64,000 bases of DNA from positions 3,286,001 through 3,350,000 of the forward strand of contig NC_064678.1 of NCBI RefSeq assembly GCF_023278565.1. The letters are read 5' to 3'. The notes under the pieces are model-generated. The model was not told the origin of the DNA. It did not search any database and saw only the letters and a list, made by a program, of their open reading frames with translations. The position numbers and the translations under genes were made by a program. Origin of the DNA: Colletotrichum lupini. Its lineage: Eukaryota; Ascomycota; Sordariomycetes; Glomerellales; Glomerellaceae. Positions within the stretch are counted from its first letter, which is position 1. Each line of letters opens with the position of its first letter. Positions 1,940 to 51,957 of the stretch are shown piece by piece.

Positions 1940-2164
1940 TGTTGGATTACGAGGCAGAAAAGGGGCCCTATTAGGTAGTTAGGTAGGGGTGGTAGGTAGG
2001 CAGTCTGGGCCCGTGCAGACGGACCCTTCTACCTACCTATACCCACTAAGGGACTGCGGGCTCTGCCCACGATCTTCCCCTCCTATACACACGCAATAAA
2101 CCTATACTAACCTATTAACCTAGTTATAACTAAAAAGTCTAACTTACTTATGTATATACTAATA
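1940..2164 (+). repeat. 5' LTR of Copia-1
   Basis: Begins TGTTGGATTACG and ends in a mutated CTAATA (CCAACA in the other copy). It aligns end to end with 8620-8844. The outer roughly 150 bp keep CA and TG dinucleotides; the inner end is RIP-mutated. Confidence 0.93.
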
Positions 2165-8619: not shown

Positions 8620-8844
8620 TATTAGATTACGAAGTAAAAAAGGGGCCCTATTAGGTAGTTAAGTAGGGGTAGTAGGTAGGTAGTCTGGGCCCGTATAGAC
8701 GGACCCTTTTACCTACCTATACCTACTAAGGGACCGCGGGCTCTGCCCACGATCTTCCCCTCCTATACACACGTAATAGACCTATACTGACCTATTGACC
8801 TAGTCGCGACCAAAAGGTCTGACCTGCCTACGTATATACCAACA
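8620..8844 (+). repeat. 3' LTR of Copia-1
   Basis: 225 bp, collinear with the 5' LTR. The outer end retains the unmutated CCAACA terminus while the inner start is mutated (TATTAG instead of TGTTGG). Purine-rich tracts lie just upstream. Confidence 0.93.
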
Positions 8845-12214: not shown

Positions 12215-12623
12215 ATGGTCGTCAAAGTCATGCCATCCTCGCGGATGACCACAGCTATCTTCTTCGCTTGTCTGTTGTTCTTGTTCTTATACTCCTCTTA
12301 TGTTCTTACTCCTTCTTATCATCCGACGTCCCCCGCCAAGCCCCCACCGGTGCAAACGCAGTCACATCCACCACAACGTTCCGACAAACCGAAGCAAGAT
12401 GGCCCGACGGCATGGCAGAAAGAGGCTGCTTTGGTCAGTGATGAAGCCGAAAACTTAATCGGCGATCCCATCCAACCTCCTTACAAGTCGAAATTCTACG
12501 AATTGGGTCAGCGGGCCAAGAAAGCCCGAGAATGGGTCAAATTTCTCGATAACGCACCCAAGTCGGAAAACATCAAGCCTACTCTAGAGAAAGTGGAAGG
12601 CGCAATCGCATCGTTGTTCCCTT

Positions 12624-12631
12624 TTATTCAA
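12624..12631. repeat. Target site duplication TTATTCAA, left copy
   Basis: Exact 8-bp direct repeat with 15500-15507, at the edges of the terminal inverted repeats. It is host coding sequence (codons for Ile and Gln). Confidence 0.95.
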
Positions 12632-12690
12632 GGGCGATAATATTCTACCACTAGCTGCCGCTATTCTGCCACTAAGTGTAGCTACGGCCG
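12632..12690 (+). repeat. Left terminal inverted repeat of the 2868-bp transposon
   Basis: Matches the reverse complement of 15441-15499 at roughly four of five positions; most differences are C/T or G/A, as expected when this copy was partly RIP-mutated and the other was not. Confidence 0.88.
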
Positions 12691-15344
12691 CCACACGACC
12701 GCCGGTCTCAGGTATATATATAAGCTAAGCTCTGCGTAGTTAGTATTTAAATAGGTTAGGCTAATTAGAGGCCGTTAATTAACTTATAATTAATTAAATT
12801 ATTTTAGTAAAAAGTACGGTAATTAACGAATTAGCCTAATTAATTACTTAATTAACTACTTAATTAACTATTAATTACTTTATATAGCCTATAGCCCGTA
12901 ATTTAATAACTTCTTCTATTTTAGCCTCGTCCTCTACTTTAGCCTCGTACTTATTAATAAGTCTATCTATCTCGCTTTTTATTATAAAATTAATATCGTA
13001 AGTATAATCCTCGTTAATTAGATTTTATAATACGTTTAATTACGTAAGATTATTAGTTAATTAAGATTATGATTTTATAAGTATTAGTGGCTAAGGAGCC
13101 CTTAAAAAATTAATTATATTATTATTAATTATATTAATTACCTCGTTAATAATAGCCCGCTAATACCCCCGCTATATTTTTATATTAAGCTCGTACGTAT
13201 CAAAATTATATATAATCTCGAGGCCTTATTAAATAAAAGTAGCCTTATTTAGTACTAAAAGTATTATTAATAATAATAGTACTAATATAGGTATTATTTT
13301 TACGCGTTTAATAGCTTTTTTATATTTAAATATAAAGGGCTCTCGTTTAAAAAAAGTACTTAGATCGACCGCTAGCTTTTTTAATTTAAGCGCCCTAGTA
13401 CCCGCTATAACTATTATAATACTTATTATAGAGCCTTATAAGCGACCCTTACCTCGGACTTATAAGGGATTAAGTAGGGGGGTAGAAGTATTACTATTAA
13501 TAATAAGCTCTAAGTATTATTAAAATTAGTATAAGTAGATCTTTTTTAATAATATTAGGGTACTATCCTTAATATATTACTAAAGAACGTAGTAATAAAG
13601 TAGCTTATAAGTAGTTCGAATTAAGTAGGGTATACACTCTTTTAACAACTTTTTATATAAACTTAAATTTAGTTATTTACTTAGTATATAGAGTTTTTAT
13701 AAGAAGTGCTTAAGGGTATCGTAATATATATACGTACGGACCTTCTTTTAAAGTAATCCCGTAATAGTACTTAATACCTTAGCTTAGTAACGGGTTTAGT
13801 AAGTATTAATTATAGCTACTTAACTTACTTAACAAATAACTAATTTATTAAATACGACTTTAAAGTTACTTATATAATAGTAGATTCGTATTTTAATACT
13901 CGCGTATAAGGATTTAATAATTAACATAGTTATATAACTAAAATACCTAATTTAGTTAATTTAAATAAGTACGATTTTTTTATACTACGGCTTAAACTAA
14001 GTATTAATAATATAATTAACTACTACTATAAGATACTTAATAGTTTTAAATTCGAATAATTAGTCGTAGTATATAACTAATAATTTACTATAAAAGAGAT
14101 TACCCTAATTTATAAGGAATTATTAAAAATAAAGGTTATATATAATAATATTAGTCTCGTCCCTCGTAGCTAGGCTAAAGTAGCGCTAGGTCTTAGTTAG
14201 TATATTAAAGTTAACGTATTAATAATAGAGTACGTACAGTACTATTTTAAATTAAGTATTATTATTAAGGGCGTTAAGTAGAGTAATCTTATAATCCGTA
14301 TATATAACTTATAAAAGGGGAATTTCGTAAGCCTAGAGTAATATTAATAGCTAGTTAATAACCTAACGGTAGTTAGCTTCTTTTTTATTAAATAGAAAAT
14401 AGCTCGTAACTTAAAAAGTATAATTATTATTCATAGCTCTATAAATATTAAATAGTAGCATATTAAATTCACTAGTTTTATATATAGAATTTATTAATAA
14501 AATATCCGGATATTATTAAAATAGGGAAATCGTAGTAATAAGTATAATAAATAAGCTCGTAATATAGCCCGCGTCGTTACGTTAGAAGCGGTACTAATAC
14601 TTTATAAAATTACGTAATTAGTTAAATAACTACTTAATAAAGGATCTATTACCTAATTCGGTATAGCAATAAGTAGCTAGTATATTAAGTATATTATAAT
14701 TAATAATACCGCTATAATTACTACTTTTTAATTAGAAGCTCGAAAGGATTTAAATAAGTTAAATACCCTTATTTTATTAATTAACAATTTAGTCCTTCTT
14801 ATTACGTAATAGCGCGCGGTAGTAATACATAAAAACGTTAATATTACTAAATAAGTAGTTATAATAATTATAAAAAGCGCTAATAACGGGATAAAAAAAC
14901 TAGTCGCTACTTAAAAAGTTAATAATAATTTACTAGCGGTAGTTTATAAACGAGGTTAAGGATTTATAACGCTTATTTAAGTAAGTTAATTCTATAAAAT
15001 ATTACTATTTTTAATTATAACGCGGGCTATAAATATAATAATAAGTAATAATAGTTAGCGCCTTAGTAAAGAGTTTATATTAAATAATTCGGACTATAAA
15101 ACTAGCCTCGTAAGTAGCCTTATTAAGTACTACTCTAGCCTTAAGTAGGCTAGAAAAGTACTAGTTATAAAATAATTAGTCGTATTTTATATAACTATAA
15201 TTATCGTAATTAATAACATATTAATAAATAAAGAGATCGTTAACTTCGTAATTATTCTTTTTTTATAGTATATTAATATTAGGAATAGTTTTAATTAGTA
15301 GTAGCGGTAGTAGTAGTAACGGCGAGGTTAATAAAGTAGTAGTT

Positions 15345-15415
15345 ATAAGTGGGTAAGTAGGTAGGTAGGTAAGTAAGTAAGTAAGTAGGTGGGTAAGTGG
15401 GTAGGTATGGGTAGC
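15345..15415 (+). repeat. GTAR tetranucleotide tract
   Basis: A run of GTAG, GTAA and GTGG units inside the right end of the transposon, just internal to the inverted repeat. On the minus strand it gives a spurious Tyr/Leu/Pro/Thr-repeat ORF. Confidence 0.85.
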
Positions 15416-15440
15416 TAGGCTCCGTGGTCGGAGGCAGGAG

Positions 15441-15499
15441 CGGCCGCAGCCACACTTGGTGGCGGGATATCGGCAGGTGCTGGCAGAATATCATCGCCC
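15441..15499 (-). repeat. Right terminal inverted repeat of the 2868-bp transposon
   Basis: Retains GC-rich, CA/TG-containing sequence including a NotI-like GCGGCCGC and ends ...CATCGCCC. It is nearly un-mutated compared with the left copy. Its reading frame runs open into the mannosyltransferase, giving a false N-terminal extension from a GTG at 15424. Confidence 0.88.
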
Positions 15500-15507
15500 T
15501 TATTCAA
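15500..15507. repeat. Target site duplication TTATTCAA, right copy
   Basis: Exact repeat of 12624-12631; the codon CAA ending it is in frame with the downstream catalytic half. Confidence 0.95.
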
Positions 15508-16611
15508 CACTCACCAAAGCGCCCAGACAGCAAGACACCATTTTCGGATTTGCGTTCGTCCATCGTCCCCGGAACACGCGGATTCATCATACCAACAGGC
15601 AAGGGAACCATGCGATATGCCACTCACCTCATCGGCTCACTCCAGAACGTCTTGTACAGCAACATGACAATCCAGATTGTATATGCCGGAGACGAGGACT
15701 TGCCATCAGCAGACCGCGAGAAGCTGCAGTCCCGCTTCAAGGGGATCGAATTCCTGGACGTTCTAAGCGTCGTCGACGATACGACTCTGCAGCTCGTCAA
15801 GGGAGGATGGGCAATCAAAGCCTTTGCGGCTCTGTATGCGCCGTTTGAAGAGGTCATTCTCTCAGATGCGGATTCGGTCTTCGTCCAGGTCCCGGAGACG
15901 CTTTTCTTAGACCCGTCATATGAGCAGACAGGGGCACTTCTTTTCCACGATCGACTACTTTGGCAGCACTCATTCGCCGACCGTCACGAGTGGTGGAAGT
16001 TGCAGATTCACGAACCTAGCGCCACGCTAAATAAGTCACTTGTCTGGACCGAGGACTACGCCGAAGAGGGCGATTCGGGTGTAGTCGTTATTGATAAGTC
16101 GCGTCTGGATGTGCTGATGGGTCTGCTCCACGTAGCTTGGCAGAACACATACGATGTGCGCGAAGAAGTCAGCTACAAAATTACGTACGGCGACAAGGAG
16201 ACTTGGTGGTTTGGACTCGAGCTCAGCGGGGCAACTTATGCCTTCGAGAAGCACTATGGCTCCATGGTTGGTTGGTTCAAGGACAAGGTCAACGACTCAA
16301 TCGAGAGAATCTGCAGCTTCGTGATAGGACACGTTGATTTGCGAGACGATCTCATTTGGTACAATGGAGGGCTTTTGAAGAACAAAAAGGTTGACCCAAA
16401 AGAATTCGGGCTTCCGACTCATACCCTGGTCGACGGAACGTGGGAGAAGGGTGGGGACCGAACCCAGATGAGCTGCATGGTTGGGCACAACGTCAAACCC
16501 CTGAGTAAGGACGCAGAGTGGATTTTAAATGGCTCCATCGCATTGGCACAAGAGCTGGACAAGGAGTTTGGCTTCATTTAGTTTGCGGCTTTGTGTCTGC
16601 TTCGTCATAGC

Positions 16612-31369: not shown

Positions 31370-33763
31370 CGTACCGCTAGGACTAATCGCCCTACCCTAT
31401 TTTAATAGTAAAAGTAGCTTATAACTATTATAATAAAAAAAGAGGACTTAAATAACGAGAAAGAGGAGGACTTACTATCTTTTTTATATACTATTTTTAT
31501 TAATAATTATAAAGCCCCTTTTTTATATTAAATAACTAATAGCTTTATTTAGGTATATTTTATCTCTTTTCTAGCTATCTTAATCCTTATTTAAAATAAA
31601 GAATAATTATTATAGTATAGAGCGGAGAGTTATTTAACTTAGTATAATACTTATTAAGGACTTACTAAGTATTAATAACTAATAGTTAGAAATATTTTTA
31701 CGAATTAAAATTATGATTAAAAAGTAGCTCTACCTACTCCCTACATATATATTTAAACTAAATATAACAAAAGATACTATTTAAAATTGAAAATTAAAAA
31801 AGAGGTTAGGATATAAATTAATAACGAGCTAATTACTAATAAAGTAGTATTACTTACGTTAATTATAATTACGACGCTACGATTTAAAAAGCTATAAGAT
31901 CTATTTCTTTTTTAAAACATTTATTATATAACCTCTTTTCCTCTTTAAAATAGTTAATAAAATACTTAAGACTTATTATTACTTTTTATAAATAGTTATA
32001 ACCGTCTTTTTTACCCTAGCCTTAGTATTTTATTATTTAAAAATAAAATAGCTTAAGTACTACCTTTAGCTTAGCTAATAATTACTAATCGTTATTATTA
32101 AAAACGTCGTTAATAGGGATCCGTTACTTTAGATCCTTATAAGCTCGACTAGTTACTAAAAAAATATAGATCTACTTTTTTTTTTATAAAGAATACTATA
32201 TTATAAAATATATCGAATTTCATTTTATATCGTTATTAAGTATTAATATAAGCTCTTATAACGACTTTTTAAAGAGAGTAAATATATTATTCTCGTCGGT
32301 CTTATTACTAACCTCGAGGAAGGCCTTATATTATTAAAATAATAAGTAAATAAATTTAATAACGTTTTAAAGCTTATTAATAAGGCCCCTTATATACTAG
32401 AGGTTAAGATCTTTTTAAAATTACTTAATATTAATTAATATATTTAATTCTTATTTAAATACCTCTTTATTATTACTAAATAAAAAGGCCCTACTAATGA
32501 GGTTAAGGATATAACTATAATATTTAATCCTTTAGTTAAGAATATTTTCTTAAGTATAAGTATAAAATAATATAGGATATAAATAACCTAGGTAAGTATC
32601 GTTATTTAAAGTATTATTATAAATAATCACTCCGACTTAATTACTTAATTCCTAGTTATTTATTATAGACTTTATAATTTAGGTAATATTAGCTTTATTA
32701 TAAGTACTATACTATTATTATAAAATAATAAGGTATTATATTTATTACTTAGTATGGTTTAAAAAGTAAGTAAAGACGGTAATAATAATATTCCGTATTA
32801 GCGAGGTTTATAAATTAAATAATAAATAGACTTTTATTATTAACCTCCGGATTTCTATCCTAATTATATCTTTTTTTTTAATGAAGATCCTACTTAGCTC
32901 CTTTTTTATATTTCTATATAATAATAAAAGTTCGTTAGTAATATTATAATTTAATTAATGAAAGAGGGCCCGGAGGTAAAGATCTTAAAAAGTTATAAAT
33001 AAGCTATTATTATTAATAACATACCTAATTACTAATTCTTTAATTCTCGTTACTTAGCCCTTTATAATAGTATTAAAAATAAGTTTTTATCTTTTTAATA
33101 TAGAGTCGTACTCTAAGGATTTTAATAAATATAATAACTCGCTAGAGCCTAGATTTATTATTTAGTATTTTAACTTTAAGTAAGTTATTACTAAGCTTAT
33201 AATTACTATTTTAAAATAAGTAATAATACTTATTTTGTTATAGCAATAATAAAATTAAAAAACTTCGCTTTAACTATTTTTATTATAAATCTCTTAAATA
33301 AAGACCCCCTCTAAGTAAATCTACGACTTCTTTAGCCTTATAGCCTTTTATAATATTAAATTATTATTAATAAAAGTCCTCCTTTTTTAAATTATTTTTA
33401 AAAAGGTGAAGAGGTTATTATAATTCTTAAAGTTAGTTAATAATACGAGGCTAGCGTTAATTAGGGTCTATAGTTACGAAGTAATTTAAAATAGCTACTA
33501 CGTATTAAAAATTATATAACTTATTACTAATTAATTAATTATAATATAGCGAATCGATTAATATATAATTCAATTAATTTCGATAATAATTATAATAGTT
33601 ATAAAGGGTTAGAAATAGTAATACGTAACTTCGTTAGTTTTATTAATATTAAAAAAAGGGGGTACTAGTTAACTAGTATAGGTTTTTTAAATTCCTAAAT
33701 AAAATAAAATACTAAATCTAGCGCTCTATACTACTTAGGGGTTTTTTTATATAATAATTATTA
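31370..33763. other. RIP-mutated, unassigned AT-rich DNA
   Basis: 2.4 kb with the same loss of CA and TG as the neighbouring elements, hence probably once repetitive. No LTR, inverted repeat or protein motif could be recognised. Confidence 0.5.
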
Positions 33764-33792
33764 ATAATCTATTTAATGAAATAGTATAATAC
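33764..33792 (+). other. tRNA-like (pol III A-box-like) half next to the Copia LTR
   Basis: TTTAATGAAATAGTATAAT resembles a tRNA D-arm/A-box after G-to-A decay. It ends in AATAC at the LTR border. The matching T-arm half lies inverted at 43484-43534 with the same AATAC. The halves alone would not justify a tRNA call. Confidence 0.4.
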
Positions 33793-33997
33793 TATTGGTA
33801 TCCTTATTATAAGGTAGTTAGTTCGAACCGTAGTTAACGAAGAGATTAATTAAACTATATAAATATTTACGTAATAAGTATAAAAAAGAGGTTATAACCG
33901 TAAGTTAAGCTAGTTATAATAATTATAAATAGGGCCCCTAATTAGCCCTTATATAGTCGGCTATATACCGTAATTAAATTAAATTTCTAATCTAATA
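33793..33997 (-). repeat. 3' LTR of Copia-2 copy 1
   Basis: 205 bp. The outer end TATTGGTATCC keeps near-original sequence; the motif AGGGCCCCTAATTAGCCC in the middle marks all copies. Confidence 0.9.
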
Positions 33998-36900
33998 CTA
34001 ACTTTTTTTTTTTTATTAATTTAACCGCTATAATTAGAAATATAATTCGACCTTGGGCCCGTTTACTAAGTCGTCTCTTTTTCCCCCTTTTCTTTACTTT
34101 TTTTATATAACCTATCCCTCTATTTATATAATAACTTTTTTACTACTTATAAATTACTCTAATCCCTTATTTAATACTGCTTTTATAAAAGCGTTTGCGA
34201 GGTTATGTTTATTATTAATTTAATAAATCTTAAGTATCTCGCGCCTTTTATATAATTACTTAAGGGCTATAATATTAATTATAAGCCTCTTTTCTTTTAT
34301 CGTTCCTAATTTAATAAAGTATTCGTATAGCGAGTAAGAATTAATATAAATAACCATTAGAATAGGTAAAAGGCTAATTTAATTAGTAATCTTTCTTAGT
34401 ATTATTAAAATTATATAAAAGAGGTTAACGCCGTTAATTATATTATAAACCTCTAACGCTAGTATACTTCTTATTACTTACTTATTTTTAATTAATAAAT
34501 AATAGATTATATTATTATATATAATAAATTCGCTCTTACTTATACTCTTATTAACTAAGATAATAATATACCCTAATTACGAAATAAGGTTATTATTATT
34601 TATAAATAACTTATTAATAAAGACGTAGAGCTTATTAATTATAAGGTTAATTAGGTAGTAGACGAGACCTCGATCGAGATTTATTTATTATTACTTAAGC
34701 TACTTATTAAATACCTCGACGTTTTATTTAGTTAGATTTATAGCCTACGCTACCCTAGCGTAGTTAAAAGTTATTTTAGGTTAATAAATACTTATAATAT
34801 ATACCCTTTATATAAGCTTAGCTTTATATTACTTTTTAATCTTAATTACGTTTAGATTAATAAGGTTAATCTTTTTACCCTACCCCTTTTATTAAAAAAC
34901 GACGGTTTCTTTTTTAATTATAAAAGTCTTGCCGTTAAATACTAAGGGGGTGTTTATTATAAAGACCCTTTTTAGTTTTATTATAAAGCCCGCTTTCTAA
35001 AGCTCCTTATCCTCCTTTTTTATAAAGTTAATATTAAATAAGCCTACTATATTATTAGTCTATATTCTAACGATCCTAAATTAATTACCTTTATACTCCG
35101 TAACTAATAAGTATAAGTTATACGTAAAAGTAATTATTAATAATTAATTAATATAAAAATCGTAATAAGTAGCTTATTAATAAGTGCCCGATTCTATAAG
35201 CTTATATAGTAGCTTAAGTACTTTAATAATCGTATCTTCTAGGTACTTACTAGCTATTTCTTTTAATAAATAGGCTAGGATTTTCTTTATAAGCCCTATA
35301 ACTAATTAGGTATAGGCCTAGGTAATATTATAGCTCTAAATCTCGTATCCCTTCTTTTATAATAATACTATTAATACTATTATTAATCGTTAGTTATAGT
35401 ACTATATAGTAAGTAATTATATAAATAGCGTCGCCTTTTTAACGTTACCGTACCCTTAAATTACGTATCTAGACTTCTCGTATAGCTAGGGTATTCCTTT
35501 TCTTTTTGTTTTATAAACTATTTATAATTTAAATATATAGAGGTTTATATATTTTTCTAAGTTATATAGGATAAATTAATAAACCCCTCGATTATAAAAA
35601 ATATTTATTTTAATAAGATCTAATCCCTTATATAGCTTTTAAATAGTTATAATTATACCTTCTTTACGTAATTTAACTACTAGCTCAAAATCGGCTTTTT
35701 CTTTTATTATATAAAAAGTATTAATTACCTCGTTACTAATAATAAATTACTATATTAAGGCTTGCCGTTATAGTCTTCTATAACGTCTCGCTAGTAATAT
35801 TAGTACCTTTTTAGCAATTTCCTTTTCCTTATTATTTATTAGTACTATTATAACGATTTTATTAAGGATAATTTCTTATACTTTTACTACGGGTTATATA
35901 ATTTCTCTTAGCTCTTCTTTTTTTTATAAGTTAGAAATTACCTCGTTAAGATCTATATAATACGGTCTAATTATTATAATTAATACTTTAAGTAGCTAGT
36001 TACGATCTCTCGTAACTATATAAGAGCGCTTATTAACGGAAATTAACTTATATAACCTAGCCTATTATTAAGTAATTTCGTATTATACTTATATATCCGA
36101 ATTTAGTAGTATATTTAAATTACCCCCTATATTGGGCCTATTGCGCATAGTAATTACTTTATTAATTTACCTTTTTATACTTATTTTACGCAATACTTAT
36201 ATTACTTTTTTAATTACTTAGGCTCGTTAGCTTATACTTAGTAACGGTAATAAGGTTAAAGTTATTCTTAAATATATTCCAAATACTAATAACATTAGTA
36301 TAAGTCCGTTAGGCCTTATAGTATTATTATAATATTTAAGTACTATTTAGAGGCATTTATTATTAATAAAATCCGGATTTTCTTTTTTAATAATTCTAAA
36401 CGCCCTTTTTAACTACTAGTATACCCTTTTTACCTTTCTAATACTATAATACGTTTTAATAAGTACGACTTTTAGTTATATACTATAAGCCGTCGTATTA
36501 TTCTTAAATTCTACCGATTTAAAACTAATACTGGCGTTAGTTCTAATACTATTTAGTAGTCTCTAGTATATATTAATCTAGCTTGTTTATAGGGCTACTT
36601 ATACTATCTTTACTTATAAATTCTAGAGGAATTACTCTACTTAAAAAAATATAGTTACGTTAATTATATATAATACTAGCTAACTATTTAAATAAAAGAT
36701 ATTAATAACGACTTCTTAATTAAAGTTAAGCTTATTACGTAATTTAAATTTAAATTTATATAAGCTTTGCGTATTTATTTAATATTAATAATATACTTTT
36801 GTTAACTACTCTAATACCCCTATTTTAATATTATTATTACTTAATTACTTTAAGAAGTTATATAGCTTTATAACTAACGAGTACTTAAATCTCTAATATA

Positions 36901-39900
36901 GTTTTCTAAGCTTACTTTTTATTAAGTAATTAATTAACTTCGTATTATTAATAAGCTTTATAAACGTATATCCCTATTATTATTTAATTATTTTGAAGTA
37001 CTTATTACTAGAGATCTTATTCCTTATATTATTAAATATAATACCTAGTCGATCTATATTTTTTAAATATAAGAGAAATAGGGTATTAATAAGTAAAATA
37101 TAAAAAGTTATCGTTCTAAAGTACGTTTTTATTTTTATTATACTTAGGGTAACGATTTCCTTACTTAGGCCGAAACTAATCCTCGTAATACCCGCTATTA
37201 ATATATTAAGCGTTATTAATATAATCTTTTATAGTACTTAGAATTACCCTTTTCTTCTAGTTAACTATTATAATACCCTAGTATTTAAAATAATCCTATA
37301 AAAATTATTTAAGTCGTACCTTTCGCTCGCGTAAAATACTTATATAAGCTTAGTATTTAAAAGATTTAGTTAGTATAAAAAGGACCCCTCTAGCTACCCC
37401 TAGATTTACTTAGTATTATATTCTTTTTTCTTTTAAATATTAAAGAAAATAGCGTTTTCTCTTTAGTTATTGAAAAAATAGGCTTCGGCACTATTAAATT
37501 TGCCTTTTTAACTACCTTTATATCTATTATTTAAAAAACCTTCTTTCATTATTTATAAATAATAGCTTATTTATTAAGAGCTTTTACTACCCTCTATTCG
37601 TTTAGCTTTATATATCCTCTAGAGGTTAACGGGGTAAAAAAAGAGTAGTTAATATTATTAATTTTATTATAATTTAATTTATTAATATAGGGGGTAAGAT
37701 CTTCTTTATTTTCTAAATCTCTTATAAGGAGTATATACTTTAAGCTACTATTTTAGTTATTATTACTAAGTTCTATACCCCTAGATTTACCCTTATATAT
37801 AATAAAGAATTAGTTAAACTAATAAGGGCTAGTTTTACTATTTACTACCCTTAACTTTTTATATTATTCGTACGATTTAATACGCTCTTTTTTAAAATAG
37901 TTACTTAACTAATATCTATTCTTTTTATAAATATAATATTACTTCTTTTATTGCCCTATTTATAAGTTAAATCTCTGCTTATTTAACGAATTTAGGCCTC
38001 TTTATTAGCGATTACTATATCTAGCCTCTTTTCTTTTTTTATTATACGTTTAATTAACTTAATATTATTAATAAGGGCCGTTATACGCTTAGAAATAAGT
38101 TTAGTACGGCATTTTTATTTTAATATTAAAGCTAGATCTTAGCTTCGAGTAGAGCGTCTCGTAGTCTTTAAGTACTTAGTATAAGGTTATTTTTATTTCT
38201 AATATACGCTAGACTATAATATAAAAATATCTAACTTTTTATTTATTTATCCCCTTATTTAGCTAGGTTTTTACTAACTTATTAATTCGATTAATAAGCT
38301 TTTTAAAGATCTTTACTTATAATTTACCCTTTATTATCCTAGTTATAAATATAAAAGAAATCGCTCGTAATTTAAATAAGAGCTTTAAGTTCTTATTATA
38401 AGTTTTAAAGCGGCTTCGGATTATATTAATTATATTAAAAAAGTCGTTTTAATCGAGATTATATACTGCTTCGTAATAATAATTAAAGGCTTTGTTTATA
38501 AGTACGATATTAATTACTAAATAGTATTAGTATTCCCTAATTCTAACTTTTTTATAATAATTATAAAATATCGTTAGGGTTTTTTATAAGACCTTATACT
38601 TCCCCCTAAAGTATAATTTCTTTTTTAAAAAGATCTTTTTAAAGTTTATAAATTATTTCGTATTTACTACTATATTTTTAGTATTTATATATAATCCCTA
38701 TATTACTACGTATTATTAATAACTTCGGGTTATTTATTTCTTTTTTTATTAGCTAATTAGTACTAAATATCGTATTAGTAATAGTAACGAATTATAAATC
38801 GAAAGAAGTAGAATTATTAATTATTATACTTTTAGTACTATATTTTACCCCGGTATATCCTTTTATAATAATAGATTTTTATTAATAATTATAAAAAGGA
38901 AATTTAAGTTATTTACCCTTTTTTTAAATTTATTAAAGTAATTATACGCTCTATTAACCTATACCTAGTTCTATAATACGAATTCCTTTTCTATAATTAT
39001 TATTATTAATATTTCGTATAGCTCTCGTAATTATAATTATATTAATAATACCCCTCGCTTATAAAGGAATTTATTAACTATTTTTATATTTCTTAGGCTT
39101 ACGCTCGCAAACTATTCGTTTAGTTAATAACTAAGGTTATTTACGATCTTATAAAATAAGAGTTACCCCTATAGCCCCTTTTTCTTATAAACCTTAGTTA
39201 AATAGATTAATACCGCGTTAATTTACTTATTATTAAGCTAATTTACGATTTTATATATTTACGTCCCCTAATAGTTTAAGTTAATATTTACTTATTTATA
39301 AAAGATTAGGATTCTATTTAAGATCGGGTTTTATTCTCTTTTTCTTTACCCTAACTTACTAAGGGTCGTGCTCTAGCTTATACTCGTATTAATAATTATT
39401 AATATATTTAATTTTAATAAGGATATATTTAATCCGCGTACTAGTTATAATAAATCCGTACTTTTACTACTTAACGAATTTATTAAAGTTTAAGAGATTC
39501 TTACTTCCTCTCGCCGTCTTATTACTACTCTCGTTTTTATTATTTTTAATAATTATTACTACTTTTTTAAATTACTAGTTATTATACTTATTAAGATCCT
39601 CTTTTTTATTTAATATAAAAAGGTAGGTTTCAATAGTTCTTTTTAATAATAGTAGCGGTAAACGTTTATATTACTATAAGAAGATATAGTAATTAGTCTC
39701 GGGATTTTTATTAATTACTAATTTTTACTATTTTATATATTCTTAGCTTTTTAAGCCTCGTATTTTCTATAATTTTTAAATAGCTTCCTTCCTTAACTTA
39801 CCTTTTTTAAAATAATATTTTATAAAAATAGTTAAAAATAAACGCTAAGTAGCTCGTAAAGGAGCTATATAAGCTATTAAGAACTATATAGGCCGTTAAG

Positions 39901-41008
39901 TATAGTTAACGAAATTAAGCCCTCCTTTTTATAAAATCGTAAATTTTAAGGACTTATTAAAAATACCTACTTATTACTCGTATATAGTAGGGTTAAATAC
40001 TTTAGAGACTTTATTTTTTATAGCCTCTTAGTATTTTATTTTATATTTTTTAAGTAGTCTTTTTTATAGCTTAATTATAGTTAAGTAATTATCGCTTATT
40101 AATAATCCCTTTTATTACTTAGTTGACTTTTTAAAATTAGTAATTTTGTGTTAAGAGTTAATATAAAAAAAAGCCCTTTAGTAGCTTTTTAAAAGATCTT
40201 TTTTTTTTTTTTAGATTTTTATTTTTTTAGCCTTTTTTTAAACTAATAATAATTTTAATAAGAGGTTATAAGACTATTTTAGGGTAGCCACCTTTTTTTT
40301 AAGTTAATTTTTAAAATCTATAATACTCTTAACTCGATATTATTAGGACTTTTAAATCCCCTCTTTTTTTATTAAACCGTCCCTTATACTTTATTTTTAA
40401 ATAATACTTAGGGGGTAATTAAGGGAGTTATAAAAAAGTTATTTAAATTCCGGGCTTAAGGTCGTACTTATAAAATCCTCGTAGTAATAGACTTTTTTAT
40501 ATACTATAAATCTCTTAACTTAATAACTCTTATAAAGTTACCTTCGTTACTAAGTAAAAATATTTATATTTAAAAATCCCTTTTTTTAATTACGTAGTAC
40601 TTTTTTATATTATATTATTAAGCTTATTTATCGTGCTAATTAATTAGGTAAGTAGTTATTACGTAAGTATTTTTCTTTTTTAATTTAACTAGTTAATTTC
40701 TAATTACGGGCCGGCTATAGAAAAGTCGTTTAGTAAAAAAACTACTTAGAGTAATAGTAAAAGGCTAATTACTTAAGTAGTTCTATTAATTAATATATTT
40801 TAATATAATAAACGTTAACCTCTTGTAAGTAATAAAGGGCTACGATTACTTAATTCCGTGCGGTATTTAAGAATTACTTTTTTTTTAATTTATTTTTATA
40901 AGGTTAATTAGTACGAATTTCTTATCCCGTACGGTATTAAAAGGTCGTCTCTTTTATATAATAAAATACCTTACTAATTTATAATAATAAAATTTAATTA
41001 CTAATTAG

Positions 41009-41210
41009 TATTAATATCCTTATTATAGGGTAGTTAGTTCGAACCGTAGTTAATAAAGAGATTAATTAAATTATATAAATATTTACGTAAGTATAAAAAG
41101 GAGGTTCTAACTATAAGTTAGGCTAGTTACGATAATCGTAAATAGGGCCCCTAATTAGCCCCTGCGTAGTCGGCCGTACGCTGCGGTTAAATTAGACTTT
41201 TAATTTAATA
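41009..41210 (-). repeat. 5' LTR of Copia-2 copy 1
   Basis: 202 bp, collinear with 33793-33997. Its outer third (41155-41190) is less mutated, for example CCCCTGCGTAGTCGGCCG. Confidence 0.9.
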
Positions 41211-43534: not shown

Positions 43535-43739
43535 TGTTAGATTAGAAGTCTAATTCGACCGTAGTATATAGCCGACTACGTAGGGGATAATTAGGGGCCC
43601 TATTTACGATTATTATAGCTAGCCTAACTTACGGTTAGAACCTCTTTTTTATAGTTACTACGTAAATATTTATATAATTTAATTAATCTCTTTATTAATT
43701 ACGGTTTAAACTAACTACCCTATAATAGGGATACTAATA
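43535..43739 (+). repeat. 5' LTR of Copia-2 copy 2
   Basis: 205 bp beginning TGTTAGATTAG (original TG preserved) and ending GATACTAATA. Confidence 0.92.
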
Positions 43740-46700
43740 CTAATTAATAATTAAATTCTATTATTATAAATTAGTAAAGTATTTTATTATATAGAAGAAA
43801 TAACTTTTTAATACTATATAGGATAGGAGATTTATATTAATTAACCTTATAAAAGTAGATAAAAAAGGAGGTAATTCTTAAATACTATACGGAATTAAGT
43901 AATTATAGCCCTTTATTACTTACGAAAAGTTAACGTTTATTATATTAAAATACGTTAATTAATAAAACTACTTAAGTAACTAGCTTTTTATTATCGCCCT
44001 AAATAGCTTTTTTATTAAACGACTTTTTTATAGCCGGCCCGTAATTAAAAATTAACTAGTTAAATTAATAAAAAAAAATACTTATATAATAACTACTTAC
44101 TTAATTAATTAGTATAACGAACGAGCTTAATAATATAATATAAAAAAGTACTGCGCGATTAAAAAAGGGGATTTTTAAATATAAATATTCTTATTTAGTA
44201 ACGAAAATAACTTTATAAGAGTTATTAAGTTAAGAGATTTATAATATATAAAAAAGTTTATTATTACGAGGATTTTATAAATATAACCTTAAGCCTATAA
44301 TTTAAATAACCTTTTTATAGCTCCTTTAACTACTTCTTAAGTATTATTTAAAAATATAATATAAGGGACGGTTTAACGAGAGAGGAGGGGATTTAAAAGT
44401 CTTAATAATATTAAGTTAAGAGTATTATAAATTTTAGAGATTAACTTAAAAAGAAAGTAGCTACCCTAAAGTAGTCCTATAACCTCTTATTAAAGTTATT
44501 ATTAACTTAAAAAAAGGCTAAAAAAACGAGGATTTAAAAAGAAAAAAAAGAATTTTTTAAAGGGCTACTAAAAGGCTTCTTTTTATATTAGCTCTTAATA
44601 TAAAATTACTAATTTTAAAAAATTAACTAAGTAATAAAAAGGATTATTAATAAGTAATAATTACTTAATTATAATTAAGCTACGAAAAAGACTACTTAAA
44701 AAATATAAAATAAGGTACTAAGAGGCCGTAAAAAATAAGATCTCTAAAGTATTTAACCTTACTATATATAAGTAATAAGTAGGCATTTTTAATAAGTTTT
44801 TAAAATCTACGATTTTATAAAAAAGAGGGCTTAACTTTATTAACTATACTTAATAACTTATATAGTTTTTAATAACTTATATAGCTCTTTTACGAGCCGC
44901 CCGGTATTTATTTTTAATTATTTTTATAAAATACTACCCTAAAAGAAGTAAGTTAAAGAAAAAAGCTATTTAGAAATTATAAAAAGTACGAGGTTTAAAA
45001 AGCTAGAAATATATAGAATAATAAAAATCATTAATTAGTAAAGATCTCGAAACTAATTATTATATCTTTTTATAATAATATAAACGTTTATTACTATTAT
45101 TATAAAAAAGAATTATTAAAACCTATTTTTTTATATTGAATAAAAAGGAGGATCTTAGTAAGTATAATAGCTAGCGTTTTAAAAAGATAATAATAATTAT
45201 TAGAAATAGTAAAAATAAGAGTAATAGCGAGATAGTAAAAGGAAATAAGAATCTCTTAAACTTCAATAAATTCGTTAAGTAATAAAAATACGGATTTATT
45301 ATAACTAGCGCGCGAATTAAATATATCCTTATTAAAATTAAATACGCTAATAACTATTAATATAAATATAAACTAGGGTATAACCCTTAATAAATTAAAA
45401 TAAAAAAAAAGAGGATAAAACCCGATCTTAAATAGAATCTTAATCTTTTATAAATAAGTAAATATTAACCCGGATTATTAAGGAACGTAAATATATAGAA
45501 TCGTAGATTAGCTTAATAATAAGTAAATTAATATAGTATTAATCTATTTAACTAAGGTTTATAAAAAAAAGGGGCTATAGGGGTAACTCTTATTTTATAA
45601 GATTATAAATAACCTTAGTTATTAACTAAACGAATAGTTTACGAGCGTAAGCCTAAGAAATATAAAAATAGTTAATAAATTCCTTTATAAGCGAGGGGTG
45701 TTATTAATATAATTATAATTACGAGAGCTATACGAAATATTAATAATAATAATTATAGAAAAGGAATTCGTATTATAGAACTAGGTATAGGTTAATAGAG
45801 CGTATAATTACTTTAATAAATTTAAAAAAAGGGTAAATAACTTAAATTTCCTTTTCATAATTATTAATAAAAATCTATTATTATAAAAGGATATACCGGG
45901 GCAAAATATAGTACTAAAAGTATAATAATTAATAATTCTGCTTCTTTCGATTTATAATTTGTTACTACTACTAATACGAAATTTAGTACTAATTAGCTAA
46001 TAAAAAAAGAAATAAATAACCCGAAGTTATTAATAATACGTAGTAATATAGGGATTATATATAAATACTAAAAATATAGTAGTAAATACGAAATAATTTA
46101 TAAACTTTAAAAAGATCTTTTTAAAAAAGAAATTATACTTTAGGGGGAAGTATAAGGTCTTATAAAAAACCCTAACGATATTTTATAATTATTATAAAAA
46201 AGTTAGAATTAGGGAATACTAATACTATTTAGTAATTAATATCGTACTTATAAACAAAGCCTTTAATTATTATTACGAAGCAGTATATAATCTCGATTAA
46301 AACGACTTTTTTAATATAATTAATATAATCCGAAGCCGCTTTAAAACTTATAATAAGAACTTAAAGCTCTTATTTAAATTACGAGCGATTTCTTTTATAT
46401 TTATAACTAGGATAATAAAAAGTAAATTACGAGTAGAGATTTTTAAAAAGCTTATTAATTAAATCGATAAACTAATAAAAACCTAGCTAAATAAGGGAAT
46501 AAATAAATAAAAAGTCGGATATTTTTATACCGCAGTTTAGCATATACTAAAAATAAAAATAACTTTATATTAAATACTTAAAAACTACGAGACGCTCTAT
46601 TTAAAGCTAAGATCTAGTTTTAATATTAAAATAAAAATACTATACTAAACCTACCTCTAAATATATAACGGCCCTTATTAATAATATTAAGTTAATTAAA

Positions 46701-49700
46701 TATATAATAAAAGAAAAAAGAGGCTAAATATAATAATTACTAATAAAGAAGCCTAGATTCGTTAAATAAATAAAAATTTAACTTATAAATAAGGTAATAG
46801 AAAAAGCAATATTATATTTATAAAACAAATAAATATTAATTAAGTAACTACTCTAAAAAAGAGCGTATTAAATCGTATAAATAATATAAAAAGTTAAGGG
46901 TAATAAATAATAAAACTAGCCCTTATTAGTTTAATTAATTCCTTATTATATATAAGGGCGGATCTGGGGGTATAGAACTTAGTAATAGTAATTAAAATAG
47001 TAGTTTGAAATATATACCCCCTATAAGAGATTTAAAAAATAAAGAAGATCTTACCCCCTATACTAACGAATTAGATTATAATAAAATTAATAATATTAAT
47101 TACTCTTTTTTTACCCCGTTAGCCTTTAGAAAATATATAAAACTAAATAAATAAAGGGTAATAGAAGCTTTTAATAAGTAAGCTTTTATTTATAAATAAT
47201 AAGAAAAGGTCCTTTAAATAACGAATACGGAGGCGGCTAAAAGGGTAAATTTAATAGGGCTAAAGCTTATTCTCTTAATAATTAAAAAGAAGACGCTATC
47301 GTTTTTAATATTTAAAAAAGAAGAATATAATACTAAGTAAATCTAAGGGTAACTAAAGGGGTCCTTTTTATATTACTTAGATCCCTTAAATACTAAGCTT
47401 ATATAAGTATTTTATACGAGCGAAAAGTACGGCCTAAACGATTTTTATAGAATTATCCTAAATACTAAGGTATTATAATAATTAATTAAAAAAAAGGGCA
47501 ATTCTAAGTATTATAAAAAATCGCGCTAATAACGCTTAATATATTAATAGCGGGTATTACGAGGATTAGTTTCGGCCTAAGTAAAGAAATCGTCGCCCTA
47601 AGTATAATAAAAATAAAAACGTACTTCGGAACGATAACTTTTTATATTTAACCCGTTAATACCCTATTTCTTTTATATTTAAAAAATATAAATCGACTAG
47701 GTATTACATTTAATAATACGAGGAATAAAATCTTTAGTAATAAGTACTTTAAAATAGTTAAATAATAATAGGGGTATACGTTTATAAAGCTTATTAATAA
47801 TACGAAGTTAATTAATTACTTAACGGAAAGTAAGCTTAGAAAACTATATTAGAAATTCGGGTACTCGTTAATTACGAGGCTATATAACCTCTTAAAGTAA
47901 TTAAGTAATAATAATATTAAAATAAGGGCGCTAAAGTAGTTAATAAAAGTATATTACTAATACTAAATAAATACGTAAAGCCTACGTAAGTTTAAATTTA
48001 AATTACGTAATAAGCTTAACTTTAACTAAGAAATCGTTATTAATATCTTTTATTTAAATAGTTAGCTAGTATTATATATAATTAACATAGCTATATTTTT
48101 TTAAATAAAGCAATTCCTCTGGGATTTATAAATAAAGATAGTATAAGTAGCCCTATAAAAAAGCTAGATCGATATATATTAAGGACTACTAAACGGTATT
48201 AAAACTAACGCTAATATTAGTTTTAAGTTAATAGAATTTAGGGATAATATAACGGCTTATGGTATATAGCTAAAAGTTGTACCCGTTAAAGCGTATTATA
48301 ATATTAAAAAAGTAAAGAGGGTATATTAGTAATTAAAAAGGGCGTTTAGAATTATTAAAAAAGAAAATCCGGATTTTATTAACGACGAATGTTTTTAAAT
48401 AGTACTTAAATATTATAATAATATTATAAGGCCTAACGGACTTATATTAACGCTATTAGTATTTAAAATATATTTAAGAACGACCTTAGTTTTACTATTA
48501 TTACTAAGCGTAAGCTAACGAGCCTAAGTAGTTAAAAAAGTAATATAAGTACTGCGCGAGGTAAGTATAAAAAAGTAAGTTAATAAGGTAATTACTATGC
48601 GCAATAGGCCTAATATAGGGGATAATCTAAATATATTACTAAATTCGGATATACGAGTATAGTACGAAATTACTTAATAATAGGCTAGGCTATATAAATT
48701 AATTTCCGTTAACGAGCGCTTTTATATAATTACGAGAGATCGTAATTAGCTACTCGAAGTATTAATTATAGTAGTTAGACCGTATTATATAGATCTTAAT
48801 AAGGTAATTTTTAACTTATAAAAAAGAGAAGAGCTAAGGGAAACTATATAACCCGTAGTAGAAGTATAGGAAATTATCCTTAATAAAATTATCATAGTAA
48901 TACTAATAGATAATAAGAAAAAGGAAATTACTAAAAGGGCACTAATACTACTGGCAAGACGTTATAAAAGACTACGATAATAAGCCCTAATATAGTAATT
49001 TATTATTAATAACGAAGTAATTAATACCTTTTATATAATAAAAAAAAAGCCGATTTTAAACTAGTAGTTAAACTACGTAAAAAAAGCATAATTATAACTA
49101 CTAAAAAGCCGTACAAGGGATTAGATCTTATCGAAGTAAATACTCTTTACGATCGAGAGGTTAATTAATTTATCCTATACGACTTAAAAAAACATATAAA
49201 CCTCTATATATTTAAATTATGAATAGTTCATAAGATTAAAAAGAAAAGAATACCCTAGCTATATAAAAAGTCTAAATACGTAATTTAGGGGTATAGTAAT
49301 ATTAAAAAAGTAACGCTACTTATATAATCGCCTATTATATAGCGCTATAGCTAACGATTAATAATAATACTAATAGTATTATTATAAAAAAAGGGATACG
49401 AAATTTAGAGCTATAATATTACTTAGGCCTATACCTAATCGGCTATAGGGCTTATAAAAAAAATCCTAGCCTATTTACTAAAAGAAATAGTTAGTAAGTA
49501 CCTAAAAGGCACAATTATTAAAATACTTAAGCTACTATATAAGCTCGTAAAATCGGGCACTTATTAATAGGCTACTTATTACGATTTTTATATTAATTAA
49601 CTATTAATAATTACTTTTATATATAATCCGTACTTACTAGTTACGGAGTATAAAAATAACTGATTTAAGATCGTTAGAATATAAACTAATAATATATTAA

Positions 49701-50109
49701 GCCTATTTAATATTAATTTTATAAAAAAAGAGAATAAAGAGCTTTAAAAAGCGGGCTTTATAGCGAAGCTAAAAAAGGTCTTTATAATAAATACCCCCTT
49801 AGTATTTAATAATAGGATTTTTATAATTAAAAAGGAAACTATTATTTTTTAATAAAAGGAGTAGGGTAAGAAAATTAACCTTATTAATCCGAATATAACT
49901 AATATTAAAAAGTAATATAAAACTAAGCTCGCGCGAGGGGTATATATTATAAGTATTTATTAGCCTGAGGTAATTTTTAATTACGTTAAGGTAGCGTAAG
50001 CTATAAATCTAACTAAATAAAATATTAAAATACTTAATAAGTAGCTTAAGTAATAAAAAACGAATCTTAATTAAGGTCTCGTTTATTACTTAATTAACCT
50101 TATAATTAA

Positions 50110-50640
50110 TAAGCTTTACGTCTTTATTAATAAGTTATTTATAAATAATAACGACTTTATTTCGTAATTAGGGTATATTATTATCCTAGTTAATAAGAGT
50201 ATAAGTAAGAGTAAATTTATTATATATAATAATATAATTTATTACTTATTAACTAAAAGTAAGCGGGTAATAAGAAGTATATTAGTATTAGAGGTTTATA
50301 ATATAATTAATAATATTAACCTCTCTTATATAATTTTAACGACGCTAAAAAAGATTATTAATCGAATTAGCCTTTTACTTATTTTAATAGTTATTTATAC
50401 TAATTCTTACTCGCTATATAAATACTTTATTAAATTAGGAACGATAAAAGAAAAGAGGCTTATAATTAATATTATAGCCCTTAAGTAATTATATAAAAGG
50501 CGCGAGATACTTAAGATTTATTAAATTAATAATAAATATAACCTCGCAAACGCTTTTATAAAAGCAGTATTAAATAAGGGATTAGAGTAATTTATAAGTA
50601 ATAAAAAAGTTATTATATAAATAGAGGGATAGGTTATATA
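50110..50640 (+). pseudogene. RNase H relic of Copia-2 copy 2
   Basis: Long readable frame with the diagnostic order of fungal Copia RNase H motifs; Asp positions read as Asn and Gln as stop, consistent with RIP. The same stretch recurs near 63620-64000 in copy 3 and inverted near 34100-34650 in copy 1. Confidence 0.8.
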
Positions 50641-50748
50641 AAAAAAGTAAAGAAAAGGGGGAAAAAGAGACGACTTAGTAAACGGGCCCAAGGTCGAATT
50701 ATATTTCTAACCGCAGTAATTAAATTAATAAAAAAAAGAAAAAGTTAA

Positions 50749-50953
50749 TATCGGATTAAAAATTTAATTTAACTACGGTATATAGCCGACTATATAAGGG
50801 CTAATTAGGGGCCCTATTTACGATTATTATAGCTAGCCTAACTTATAATTAGAACCTCTTTTTTATACTTATTACGTAAATATTTATATAGTTTAATTAA
50901 TCTCTTTGTTAACTACGGTTCGAACTAACTACCCTATAATAGGGATACTAATA
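50749..50953 (+). repeat. 3' LTR of Copia-2 copy 2
   Basis: 205 bp from TATCGGATTA to GATACTAATA, collinear with the 5' LTR. Confidence 0.92.
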
Positions 50954-51022
50954 AATTATAACGAGTGTGGACGGTATGTAAGTTAAAACTCAGTATAAAT
51001 TGACCTAATTTAACTGACGTAG

Positions 51023-51752
51023 AAAAGGTTTCTTCTTGCAAAGCTACATCTCCAGTCATTGACTAGCAAAAGATCACTAAAAGCCGTCAAAGCCGCTTTG
51101 GAAACACTCGCCACTGGCTCCAGCTCTTATGATACTGCTTACGATGAAGCCTTCGAACGAATTGAAGGTCAACTAGAAGACCAATCAGCACTTGCCAAGG
51201 ATGCATTATCGTGGATTGTTTGCTCGAAAAGGCCGCTTCAGATCGTTGAGTTACAAGAAGCTCTTGCAGTGGAGCAAGGTATGACCGAGCTCGACACGGA
51301 GAACCGGCCTGAAATCGAAGATGTCATCTCGGCCTGCGCTGGGTTGCTCACAATCGACGAATATAGTCGTGTAGTGCGGCTTGTGCATTACACTACACAG
51401 GAGTACTTCCAGCGGAACAAAACAAACCGACTTCCTGGAGCAGAAGCTCTGGTAGCAGCTGCTTGTGTATCATATCTCAGCTTCGATGTTTTCGATGCGG
51501 GTCAGTGCGAATATCAGAGTGAACTAAGAGATCGCATCCAGGATCATCCGCTTTACCACTACGCTTCAGTGAATTGGGGATACCACGTTCGGGAATCGCA
51601 TCACGTCCAGGAAGAGGTCATGTGTTTTTTGGAGGACCAGGAAAGACTGCGCGCCTCAGCACAGGTACTCTTTGGCCCAAAGACCCGGTACTTTTATAAA
51701 GCCGGTCGTGTGACTAATAGTGTCACGCGGTGTCCAATTATCGAAACGTTTA
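51023..51752 (+). pseudogene. NACHT/STAND (NLR-like) protein fragment cut on both sides by Copia elements
   Basis: About 243 host codons. The frame reads KRFLLAKLHLQSLTSKRSLK from 51023, followed by SSYDTAYDEAFERIEGQ, ALSWIVCSKRPLQIVELQEAL, the LTIDEYSRVVRLVHYTTQEYF stretch and HPLYHYASVNWGYH. This is the segment after the NTPase core in fungal NLR-like proteins, containing the winged-helix domain that precedes ankyrin or WD repeats. Such proteins act in non-self recognition and regulated cell death, but the job of this one is unknown. The NTPase domain is missing upstream, where mutated sequence and the LTR ending at 50953 intervene. The frame stops at 51763 inside the next LTR, so the repeats are missing too. 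Upstream flank 50954-51022 shows some RIP-like decay. Confidence 0.85.
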
Positions 51753-51957
51753 TATCGGATTAGAAGTCTAATTCGACCGCGGCATATAGACGACTACGTA
51801 GGGGCTAATTAGGGGCCCTATTTATAATTATTATAGCTAGCCTAACTTACGGTTAAAACCTCCTTTTTATACTTATTACGTAGATATTTATATAGTTTAA
51901 TTAATCTCTTTATTAACTATAGTTCGAACTAACTATTTTATAATAAGGATACTAATA
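51753..51957 (+). repeat. 5' LTR of Copia-2 copy 3
   Basis: 205 bp from TATCGGATTAG to GATACTAATA; its first 50 bp are little mutated. Confidence 0.92.

What the first reader, a model, noticed from the sequence alone, without database searches (positions are those of the whole stretch)
12624..15507. Mannosyltransferase gene split exactly in frame by a DNA transposon
Seen directly: TTATTCAA flanks an element with inverted ends, and the two host halves are in the same frame with no stop or gap when the element plus one target copy is removed. An MNN1-type enzyme with an otherwise undamaged coding sequence suggests a recent hit, possibly a strain-specific loss of a glycan-modifying enzyme. If the element could once excise, it would leave small footprints in the stem-to-catalytic junction.
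Basis: partly seen in the sequence, partly recalled or inferred. Interest (0 to 1): 0.8.

Follow-up and report, generated by a model that had tools for sequence, protein, structure and literature searches.

The report
Mutated transposon splitting a mannosyltransferase gene
In what is probably the lupin anthracnose fungus, a Mutator-type jumping gene, itself ruined by the fungus's own repeat-mutating defence, sits inside a sugar-transferring enzyme gene and breaks it; this is an ordinary kind of gene loss, but the mutation pattern bears on whether this supposedly asexual fungus had sex lately.

Summary
TTATTCAA (12624-12631, 15500-15507) flanks a 2868-bp element with about 60-bp inverted ends. 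The two host halves, searched apart, match residues 1-140 and 134-496 of one uninterrupted 496-aa Colletotrichum melonis protein, with no residue lost. The gene is a GT71 (MNN1/MNT-type) mannosyltransferase, cut between anchor/stem and catalytic domain.

The element is most likely a Mutator-like element (MULE): a MULE domain trace (just below cut-off here, above it in 12 of 21 aligned sisters) and perfect 8-bp duplications in 33 of 37 elements with both ends located. Its interior is saturated with repeat-induced point mutation (RIP); the host exons are not.

Differences from three sisters are 390-408 transitions to 6 transversions, so nearly identical copies were each mutated independently. 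Five transversions are private to this copy, so "recent" is only partly right. The host protein shows no marked acceleration (5 changes against 4), a weak test. Strain specificity could not be tested. If RIP struck in place, a RIP-competent, normally sexual, stage acted after the split from C. melonis. New member of a known kind.

The parts
12215..12631 (+). 5' half of the GT71 mannosyltransferase gene (start codon, membrane anchor, stem; 139 codons, ends in the left target-site copy)
   Evidence: matches residues 1-140 of intact C. melonis P0003 at 94%; translation; ATG at 12215; anchor read by eye from the hydrophobic stretch
12624..12631 (.). left copy of the 8-bp target-site duplication TTATTCAA
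12632..15499 (.). Mutator-like element, 2868 bp, interior saturated with RIP-type mutations
   Evidence: ends and length; RIP indices TA/AT 1.68 and (CA+TG)/(AC+GT) 0.07 for 12718-15339; family copies
12632..12691 (+). left terminal inverted repeat; A at 12639 and 12647 where L009, L010, L012 and L050 have G (L014 and L049 also have A at the first of these)
15440..15499 (-). right terminal inverted repeat, no RIP-type change in this copy against the four sisters compared
14261..14500 (-). remnant of MULE transposase domain (PF10551), 5 stops inside
   Evidence: 26.9 bits, E 2.9e-4, just under the 27.6 cut-off; 22.4 bits, E 1.8e-4 with X at stops; 12 of 21 aligned sisters over the cut-off
12638..12640 (+). 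TAA inside the element that ends the 5' reading frame (predicted 141-aa fragment)
15500..15507 (.). right copy of TTATTCAA
15508..16581 (+). 3' half of the gene: GT71 catalytic domain, stop TAG
   Evidence: P0003 residues 134-496 match at 98% (overlap with the 5' half is the duplicated target and element-end codons); PF11051 115.1 bits; yeast MNT2 structure 7xjv E 4.7e-8
15610..16581 (+). first ATG-started frame left in the 3' half (323 aa), lacking the anchor and the first positions of the Pfam domain
   Evidence: Pfam match starts at residue 55 of P0002, the ATG is residue 66

Best explanation
A Mutator-like DNA transposon inserted into the coding sequence of a Golgi-type alpha-1,3-mannosyltransferase gene (family GT71, Pfam Mannosyl_trans3) of a Colletotrichum of the C. 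acutatum complex, most likely C. lupini, duplicating 8 bp of target. Translation now ends two codons into the element, giving a 141-aa anchor-and-stem fragment without catalytic domain; the 3' part keeps an open catalytic frame but is cut off from the gene's start codon, anchor and upstream region. The gene is therefore a null allele (inferred, no expression data). The element belongs to a multicopy family; nearly identical copies of it were each mutated by RIP, which stopped at the element's edge because the host gene is single copy. The null allele is probably locked in, because the element's transposase is broken and one end is mutated. Shown: insertion, duplication, one-gene origin of the halves, family copies, RIP pattern. 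Inferred: loss of function, RIP in place rather than before arrival, species name.
For: Duplication and inverted ends. Halves match one orthologue without loss. GT71 identity. MULE domain here and in sisters. 33 of 37 elements with both ends located, this one included, have a perfect 8-bp duplication; 2 differ at one base and 2 do not match. RIP indices inside and outside. Against L009, L010 and L012: 405, 390 and 408 transitions with 6 transversions each; L010-L012 differ by 338 transitions and L009-L012 by 371, both with 0 transversions. Among 696 RIP-type sites varying in these four copies, 125 are mutated only here and 26 kept only here. C. lupini: C. melonis 98% protein match; 63,443,975 bases against 63.4 Mb as the largest C. 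lupini assembly in PMC11645255; ten contigs sum to 62.88 Mb (my sum), leaving 0.56 Mb for two, which fits the 0.52-Mb accessory chromosome described there.
Against: The MULE hit in this copy alone is below Pfam's cut-off, and 9 of 21 aligned sisters do not pass it either (3 listed below it, 6 not listed). MULE inverted ends are said to be commonly hundreds of bases long (PMC6446971); here about 60. No transcript data, so loss of function is inferred. A pair of RIP-mutated copies elsewhere (L027/L048, 96% identical, different duplications) suggests that already mutated copies could move, so RIP in place is not proven. The private transversions fit an insertion that is not very young. C. filicis has a genome of similar size, 62.96 Mb, so the species name is not certain.
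Confidence: 0.92

Rival explanations
1. The copy was already RIP-mutated when it was moved into this gene by a transposase acting in trans, so no RIP happened at this locus.
For: L027 and L048 share most of their RIP state (96% identity, 110 transitions, 4 transversions) but have different duplications, and their main alignment covers the element and stops at its ends. Cut-and-paste leaves no donor copy behind. L014 and L049 carry the same A at position 8 of the left end and may have it by descent.
Against: No close sister of this copy was found. Among the 40 scored candidates of each interior search the best identity is 86% over the whole 1.1-kb query and 88% over about 0.9 kb; only stretches under 200 bp reach 90-93%. 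Best of 21 full alignments 86.2%; of the three left out for length, L011 is 88.6% over 1236 sites (135 transitions, 6 transversions; a further 185 bp at 93.5%), L014 86.3% and L013 85.1%. Its left end has RIP-type changes at positions 8 and 16 that four sisters lack, which should hinder transposase binding (inference). Site patterns pair it with L009, L010 and L012 at 80, 73 and 52 sites, so no marked partner.
Confidence: 0.22
2. The element is a hAT transposon, as the 8-bp duplication might suggest.
For: 8-bp duplications are also the hAT length (recalled), and this copy's own duplication fits the recalled hAT target pattern.
Against: The hAT target pattern nTnnnnAn (recalled) fits 6 of 33 clean duplications; inverted ends of about 60 bp; a MULE and no hAT domain was found inside. 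The hAT dimerisation family has 3 matches in the genome, none in this element or in the copies fetched.
Confidence: 0.02
3. The element is spliced out as a giant intron and the enzyme is still made.
For: Frame is open in both halves and the halves are conserved.
Against: The last GT dinucleotides before the in-frame stop are at 12593 (GTGGAA), 12613 (GTTGTT) and 12616 (GTTCCC), none a good donor, and using them would delete codons. A 2.9-kb intron would be unusual for a fungus (recalled).
Confidence: 0.02
4. The two halves come from different genes, or the junction is an assembly error.
For: None found.
Against: Both halves match one orthologue at adjacent residues and no other locus of the genome at that level (next best 58%); perfect duplication; same structure at many other sites.
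Confidence: 0.01

Closest known systems
Mutator-like elements (MULEs), fungal Hop-type group
   Same: MULE transposase domain, inverted ends of tens of bases, 8-bp duplication. PMC6446971 (passages seen) gives 8-11 bp duplications for MULEs, an aphid MULE with 74-bp ends and 8-bp duplication, and fungal subgroups of its group 35 with ends of 22, 51 and 85-99 bp.
   Different: This copy is broken by RIP; no zinc-finger or second frame was recognised; the same paper calls ends of hundreds of bases common; the subgroup was not placed.
MULE-MuDR families of Colletotrichum
   Same: MULE-MuDR is named as a repeat class of C. lupini in a supplementary legend (PMC11645255, passage). Two MULE-MuDR families of C. 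truncatum show CpA-biased transitions (PMC6180176, passages).
   Different: Those papers' family sequences were not compared here. MULE-MuDR-1 of C. truncatum fails one of the two RIP indices; the element here passes both.
RIP in Colletotrichum without known sex
   Same: RIP-mutated elements reported in C. higginsianum and, as cited there, C. cereale, with the same puzzle about sex (PMC5576322, passages).
   Different: Here single copies are compared by transitions and transversions, at a gene split that an intact relative lacks.
GT71 alpha-1,3-mannosyltransferases (yeast MNN1, MNT2, MNT3)
   Same: Pfam PF11051; solved yeast MNT2 (7xjv) similar over residues 211-326 of the 3' frame.
   Different: Split by an insertion; activity of the intact orthologue untested. 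The GT71 label for PF11051 is recalled, and used in several source names.

Membership tests
Mutator-like element (MULE) | MULE transposase domain (PF10551) | tested here: inconclusive
   This copy 26.9 bits, cut-off 27.6; among 21 aligned full-length sisters 12 above, 3 below, 6 not listed (matched by coordinates). Met for the family, not for this copy alone.
Mutator-like element (MULE) | 8-11 bp target-site duplication | tested here: met
   8 bp here; perfect in 33 of 37 elements with both ends located
Mutator-like element (MULE) | terminal inverted repeats | tested here: met
   62 nt, 82%. Shorter than the hundreds of bases that PMC6446971 calls common, within its fungal subgroups
Mutator-like element (MULE) | uninterrupted transposase frame with catalytic residues | tested here: not met
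   72 stops in the 956-codon minus-strand frame; the copy is a dead member, which does not bear on descent
hAT | target nTnnnnAn (recalled) | tested here: not met
   6 of 33; this copy's own duplication does fit it
hAT | hAT dimerisation domain (PF05699) | tested here: not met
   3 matches in the genome, none in this element
RIP | C-to-T/G-to-A changes in repeats, TA excess, CpA loss | tested here: met
   indices; 390 transitions to 6 transversions with L010
RIP | single-copy flanks spared | tested here: met
   (CA+TG)/(AC+GT) 1.26 and 1.16 in the two exons against 0.07 inside
RIP | dependence on RID and the sexual cycle | not testable with these tools
   a 755-aa methyltransferase frame without stops is present; its identity as RID rests on a recalled motif
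GT71 mannosyltransferase | Mannosyl_trans3 domain (PF11051) | tested here: met
   115.1 bits, cut-off 22
GT71 mannosyltransferase | one continuous frame with N-terminal anchor and catalytic domain | tested here: not met
   anchor and catalytic parts are separated by the element

The most novel reading that the evidence does not exclude
The split gene is a time marker: because an intact C. melonis orthologue exists and the element inside the gene was RIP-mutated in place, a RIP-competent, normally sexual, stage operated in the C. lupini lineage after it split from C. melonis, although no sexual state is recorded. Bolder still: the lost enzyme is of a class whose missing glycan products are linked with sexual development in Fusarium graminearum (PMC12244721), so this loss could be one of the steps towards clonal life.
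Probability: 0.35. Interest if true: 0.55.

Novelty: new member of a known kind. Interest (0 to 1): 0.34.

Why it matters
Gene loss by transposon is common, and so is RIP of transposons. The locus is useful because it offers a simple presence/absence marker and a clock: an insertion absent from a close relative, carrying its own count of RIP transitions and of RIP-independent transversions. Read across the four C. lupini lineages it could show whether RIP, and hence sex, stopped before or after the lineages separated. It also predicts altered terminal mannosylation in this fungus, with two other GT71 loci left.

Tried and rejected
Search for a truncated 5' product in the protein database: 6 candidates, none scored (lengths limited to 0.55-1.75 of the query, database clustered at 90%). 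Rfam at gathering threshold and tRNA scans of the window: none. hAT identity: rejected. A simple model of independent mutation per copy did not fit the site patterns (chi-square 62, 9 degrees of freedom); all six two-against-two classes are below expectation, which I read as unequal site sensitivity and not as shared history, but this was not modelled. An absolute date was not attempted: no rate and no orthologue DNA were at hand. dN/dS could not be computed, since only proteins of the relatives were to hand. The relative count (5 against 4 amino acid changes, one further site ambiguous; some outgroups disagree at sites 63 and 342) has little power and cannot exclude that the gene has been dead for much of the lineage's history. 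A paper search for Colletotrichum with mannosyltransferase and MNN1 gave 4 papers, none on this locus by title or abstract start. I ran no search for this insertion itself and make no claim that it is absent from print.

Rows dropped before counts: of 28 fetched loci screened for the full-length alignment, 3 had no pair of ends (L062, L063, L065), 1 gave a poor right end (L056), and 3 were left out for length (L011, L013, L014), leaving 21 plus the window's copy; the three were compared apart. L028 showed one end only. The 37 elements in the duplication count are the window's copy, 11 short copies (L016-L026) and 25 longer ones, L046, L049, L050 and L056 being the four not perfect. The private-transversion count uses only columns with at least 18 of 22 copies.

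Full report
What was claimed and what is there. All of this holds. TTATTCAA lies at 12624-12631 and 15500-15507, and the element is 2868 bp with inverted ends of about 60 nt at 82%. The 5' frame starts at ATG 12215 and runs without a stop to 12631; in the element it ends at TAA 12638-12640. The 3' frame runs from 15508 to the TAG ending at 16581.

One gene, no loss. I searched the halves apart. The 3' frame has Pfam Mannosyl_trans3 at 115.1 bits and a match to solved yeast MNT2 at E 4.7e-8. Its best relative is a 496-aa protein of Colletotrichum melonis at 98%. In the window's own genome that protein matches the two halves at residues 1-140 (94%) and 134-496 (98%); the next best locus is 58% identical. 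The junction reads FPFIQ / HSPK here. Of 11 intact relatives read, 8 have FPFIQHSPK, 2 have FPFIQNSP and C. melonis has FPFIRHSPK. The cut lies between anchor plus stem and catalytic domain.

Which organism. The window is C5:3286001-3350000 of a 63,443,975-base genome in 12 contigs. Ten of these contigs, listed, sum to 62.88 Mb, which leaves 0.56 Mb for the other two. C. lupini assemblies reach 63.4 Mb with ten core chromosomes and one accessory chromosome of up to 0.52 Mb (PMC11645255: abstract, the first two of three parts of Results and the Discussion read). The protein match is to the same species complex. Against certainty, C. filicis is 62.96 Mb. No tool names the genome, so C. lupini is an inference.

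The element. Searches with its left and right ends gave 40 scored places each, this copy included, of 116 and 154 candidates. Of 37 elements whose two ends I located, this one included, 33 have a perfect 8-bp duplication, 2 differ at one base (L049, L050) and 2 do not match (L046, L056). The MULE transposase domain lies on the minus strand at 14261-14500, 26.9 bits, just below the 27.6 cut-off; read with X at stops the whole frame scores 22.4 bits, E 1.8e-4. Among the 21 aligned full-length sisters, 12 have a MULE match over the cut-off, 3 have one below it and 6 are not listed (matched by coordinates). The hAT family has 3 matches in the genome, none in this element, and the recalled hAT target pattern fits 6 of 33 duplications, this copy's own among them. 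I therefore file the element as a dead Mutator-like element. Eleven shorter copies of 751-860 bp share its ends.

RIP. The interior (12718-15339) has TA/AT 1.68 and (CA+TG)/(AC+GT) 0.07; the two exons have 0.52 and 1.26, and 0.53 and 1.16. The mutated zone reaches the eighth base of the left end (12639), while the exon beside it is normal. Against L009, L010 and L012 there are 405, 390 and 408 transitions and 6 transversions each; against L050, second nearest by identity, 392 and 17; against the other 17 aligned copies 379-475 transitions and 23-49 transversions, many of these copies having the other type of end. L010 and L012 differ from each other by 338 transitions and no transversion, L009 and L012 by 371 and none. 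Copies that were practically identical were thus mutated independently. Among 696 RIP-type sites varying in the four copies, 125 are mutated only here, 26 are kept only here, and pairings with L009, L010 and L012 number 80, 73 and 52. A model of fully independent mutation does not fit (chi-square 62 on 9 degrees of freedom); I ascribe this to unequal sites without having shown it.

How old. This copy has 5 private transversions, fourth highest of 22 (L049 10, L064 8, L050 7; L009, L010, L012, L052, L057 and L060 none). So it is not among the youngest. In the host protein, polarised on five outgroup species by majority, I assign 5 changes to this lineage (5' half A46V, S63G, I74V; 3' half S165L, S342G) and 4 to the C. 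melonis lineage (5' half K58T, E79V, Q139R; 3' half A38G), one further site being ambiguous. No acceleration is visible, but the test is weak. The reading that I hold: the gene was broken after the split from C. melonis, not extremely recently.

In place or before arrival. For RIP in place: no close sister was found and the left end itself is mutated. Against certainty: L027 and L048 suggest that RIP-mutated copies could move (96% identity, main alignment confined to the element, different duplications), and L014 and L049 share the change at position 8 of the left end. I give RIP in place about three in four.

Sex. RIP acts before meiosis (stated in PMC5576322, passages). No sexual state is recorded for C. 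lupini and its clade (PMC10189766, passages), while PMC11645255 does not rule out rare sex (Discussion). RIP in Colletotrichum without known sex has been reported (PMC5576322, passages), so the puzzle is known. The main texts of PMC11645255 and PMC10189766 do not contain the words RIP or repeat-induced. Three cytosine methyltransferase loci with open frames are present, among them a 755-aa frame with an EQT motif that I recall as typical of RID, and an 882-aa frame that I take for Dim-2-like from memory.

Consequence. Loss of function is inferred. The genome has two other GT71 loci with long open frames, on C7 (540 aa) and C9 (553 aa). In Fusarium graminearum, glycans not modified by Mnn1 and Mnt2-4 were linked with sexual development (PMC12244721, section 24 read). 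That this loss bears on clonality is speculation.

Verdict. A correct, precise observation of an ordinary event, with a RIP history that turns the locus into a usable marker.

Noticed in passing
L027 (G000:C4:7395312-7398193) and L048 (G000:C3, about 7181.6-7184.5 kb): Two RIP-mutated copies of the same family are 96% identical (110 transitions, 4 transversions) with different target duplications and no main alignment beyond the element, so a mutated copy seems to have moved.
   Followed up: partly
L016-L026: Eleven short copies (751-860 bp) with the same ends and 8-bp duplications, some hardly RIP-mutated (L019 GC 0.569), look like internally deleted, non-autonomous members.
   Followed up: no
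window 33745-41210 and 43540-50958: Two RIP-mutated LTR-type elements in opposite orientation (88.5% over 7.4 kb) enclose an island of higher GC at about 41.3-43.3 kb.
   Followed up: no
window 1942-2162 and 8622-8842: An 87% direct repeat pair 6.7 kb apart, probably LTRs of a RIP-mutated element, next to exons of an AMP-binding enzyme at 693-1779.
   Followed up: no
window 51023-51760: A 246-aa open frame with a GPIID winged-helix domain in a small GC-rich island between retroelement remains.
   Followed up: no
G000:C3:5036096-5037247 (L066), G000:C4:5961306-5962193 (L067), G000:C5:3156229-3156462 (L069): Cytosine methyltransferase loci with open frames, two of which look like Dim-2 and RID by recalled motifs; the RIP machinery may be intact.
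   Followed up: partly
window 15346-15407: A degenerate 4-base tandem array (GGTA/TAAG) just inside the right end; the translations of L010 and L012 show a like repeat at that end.
   Followed up: no
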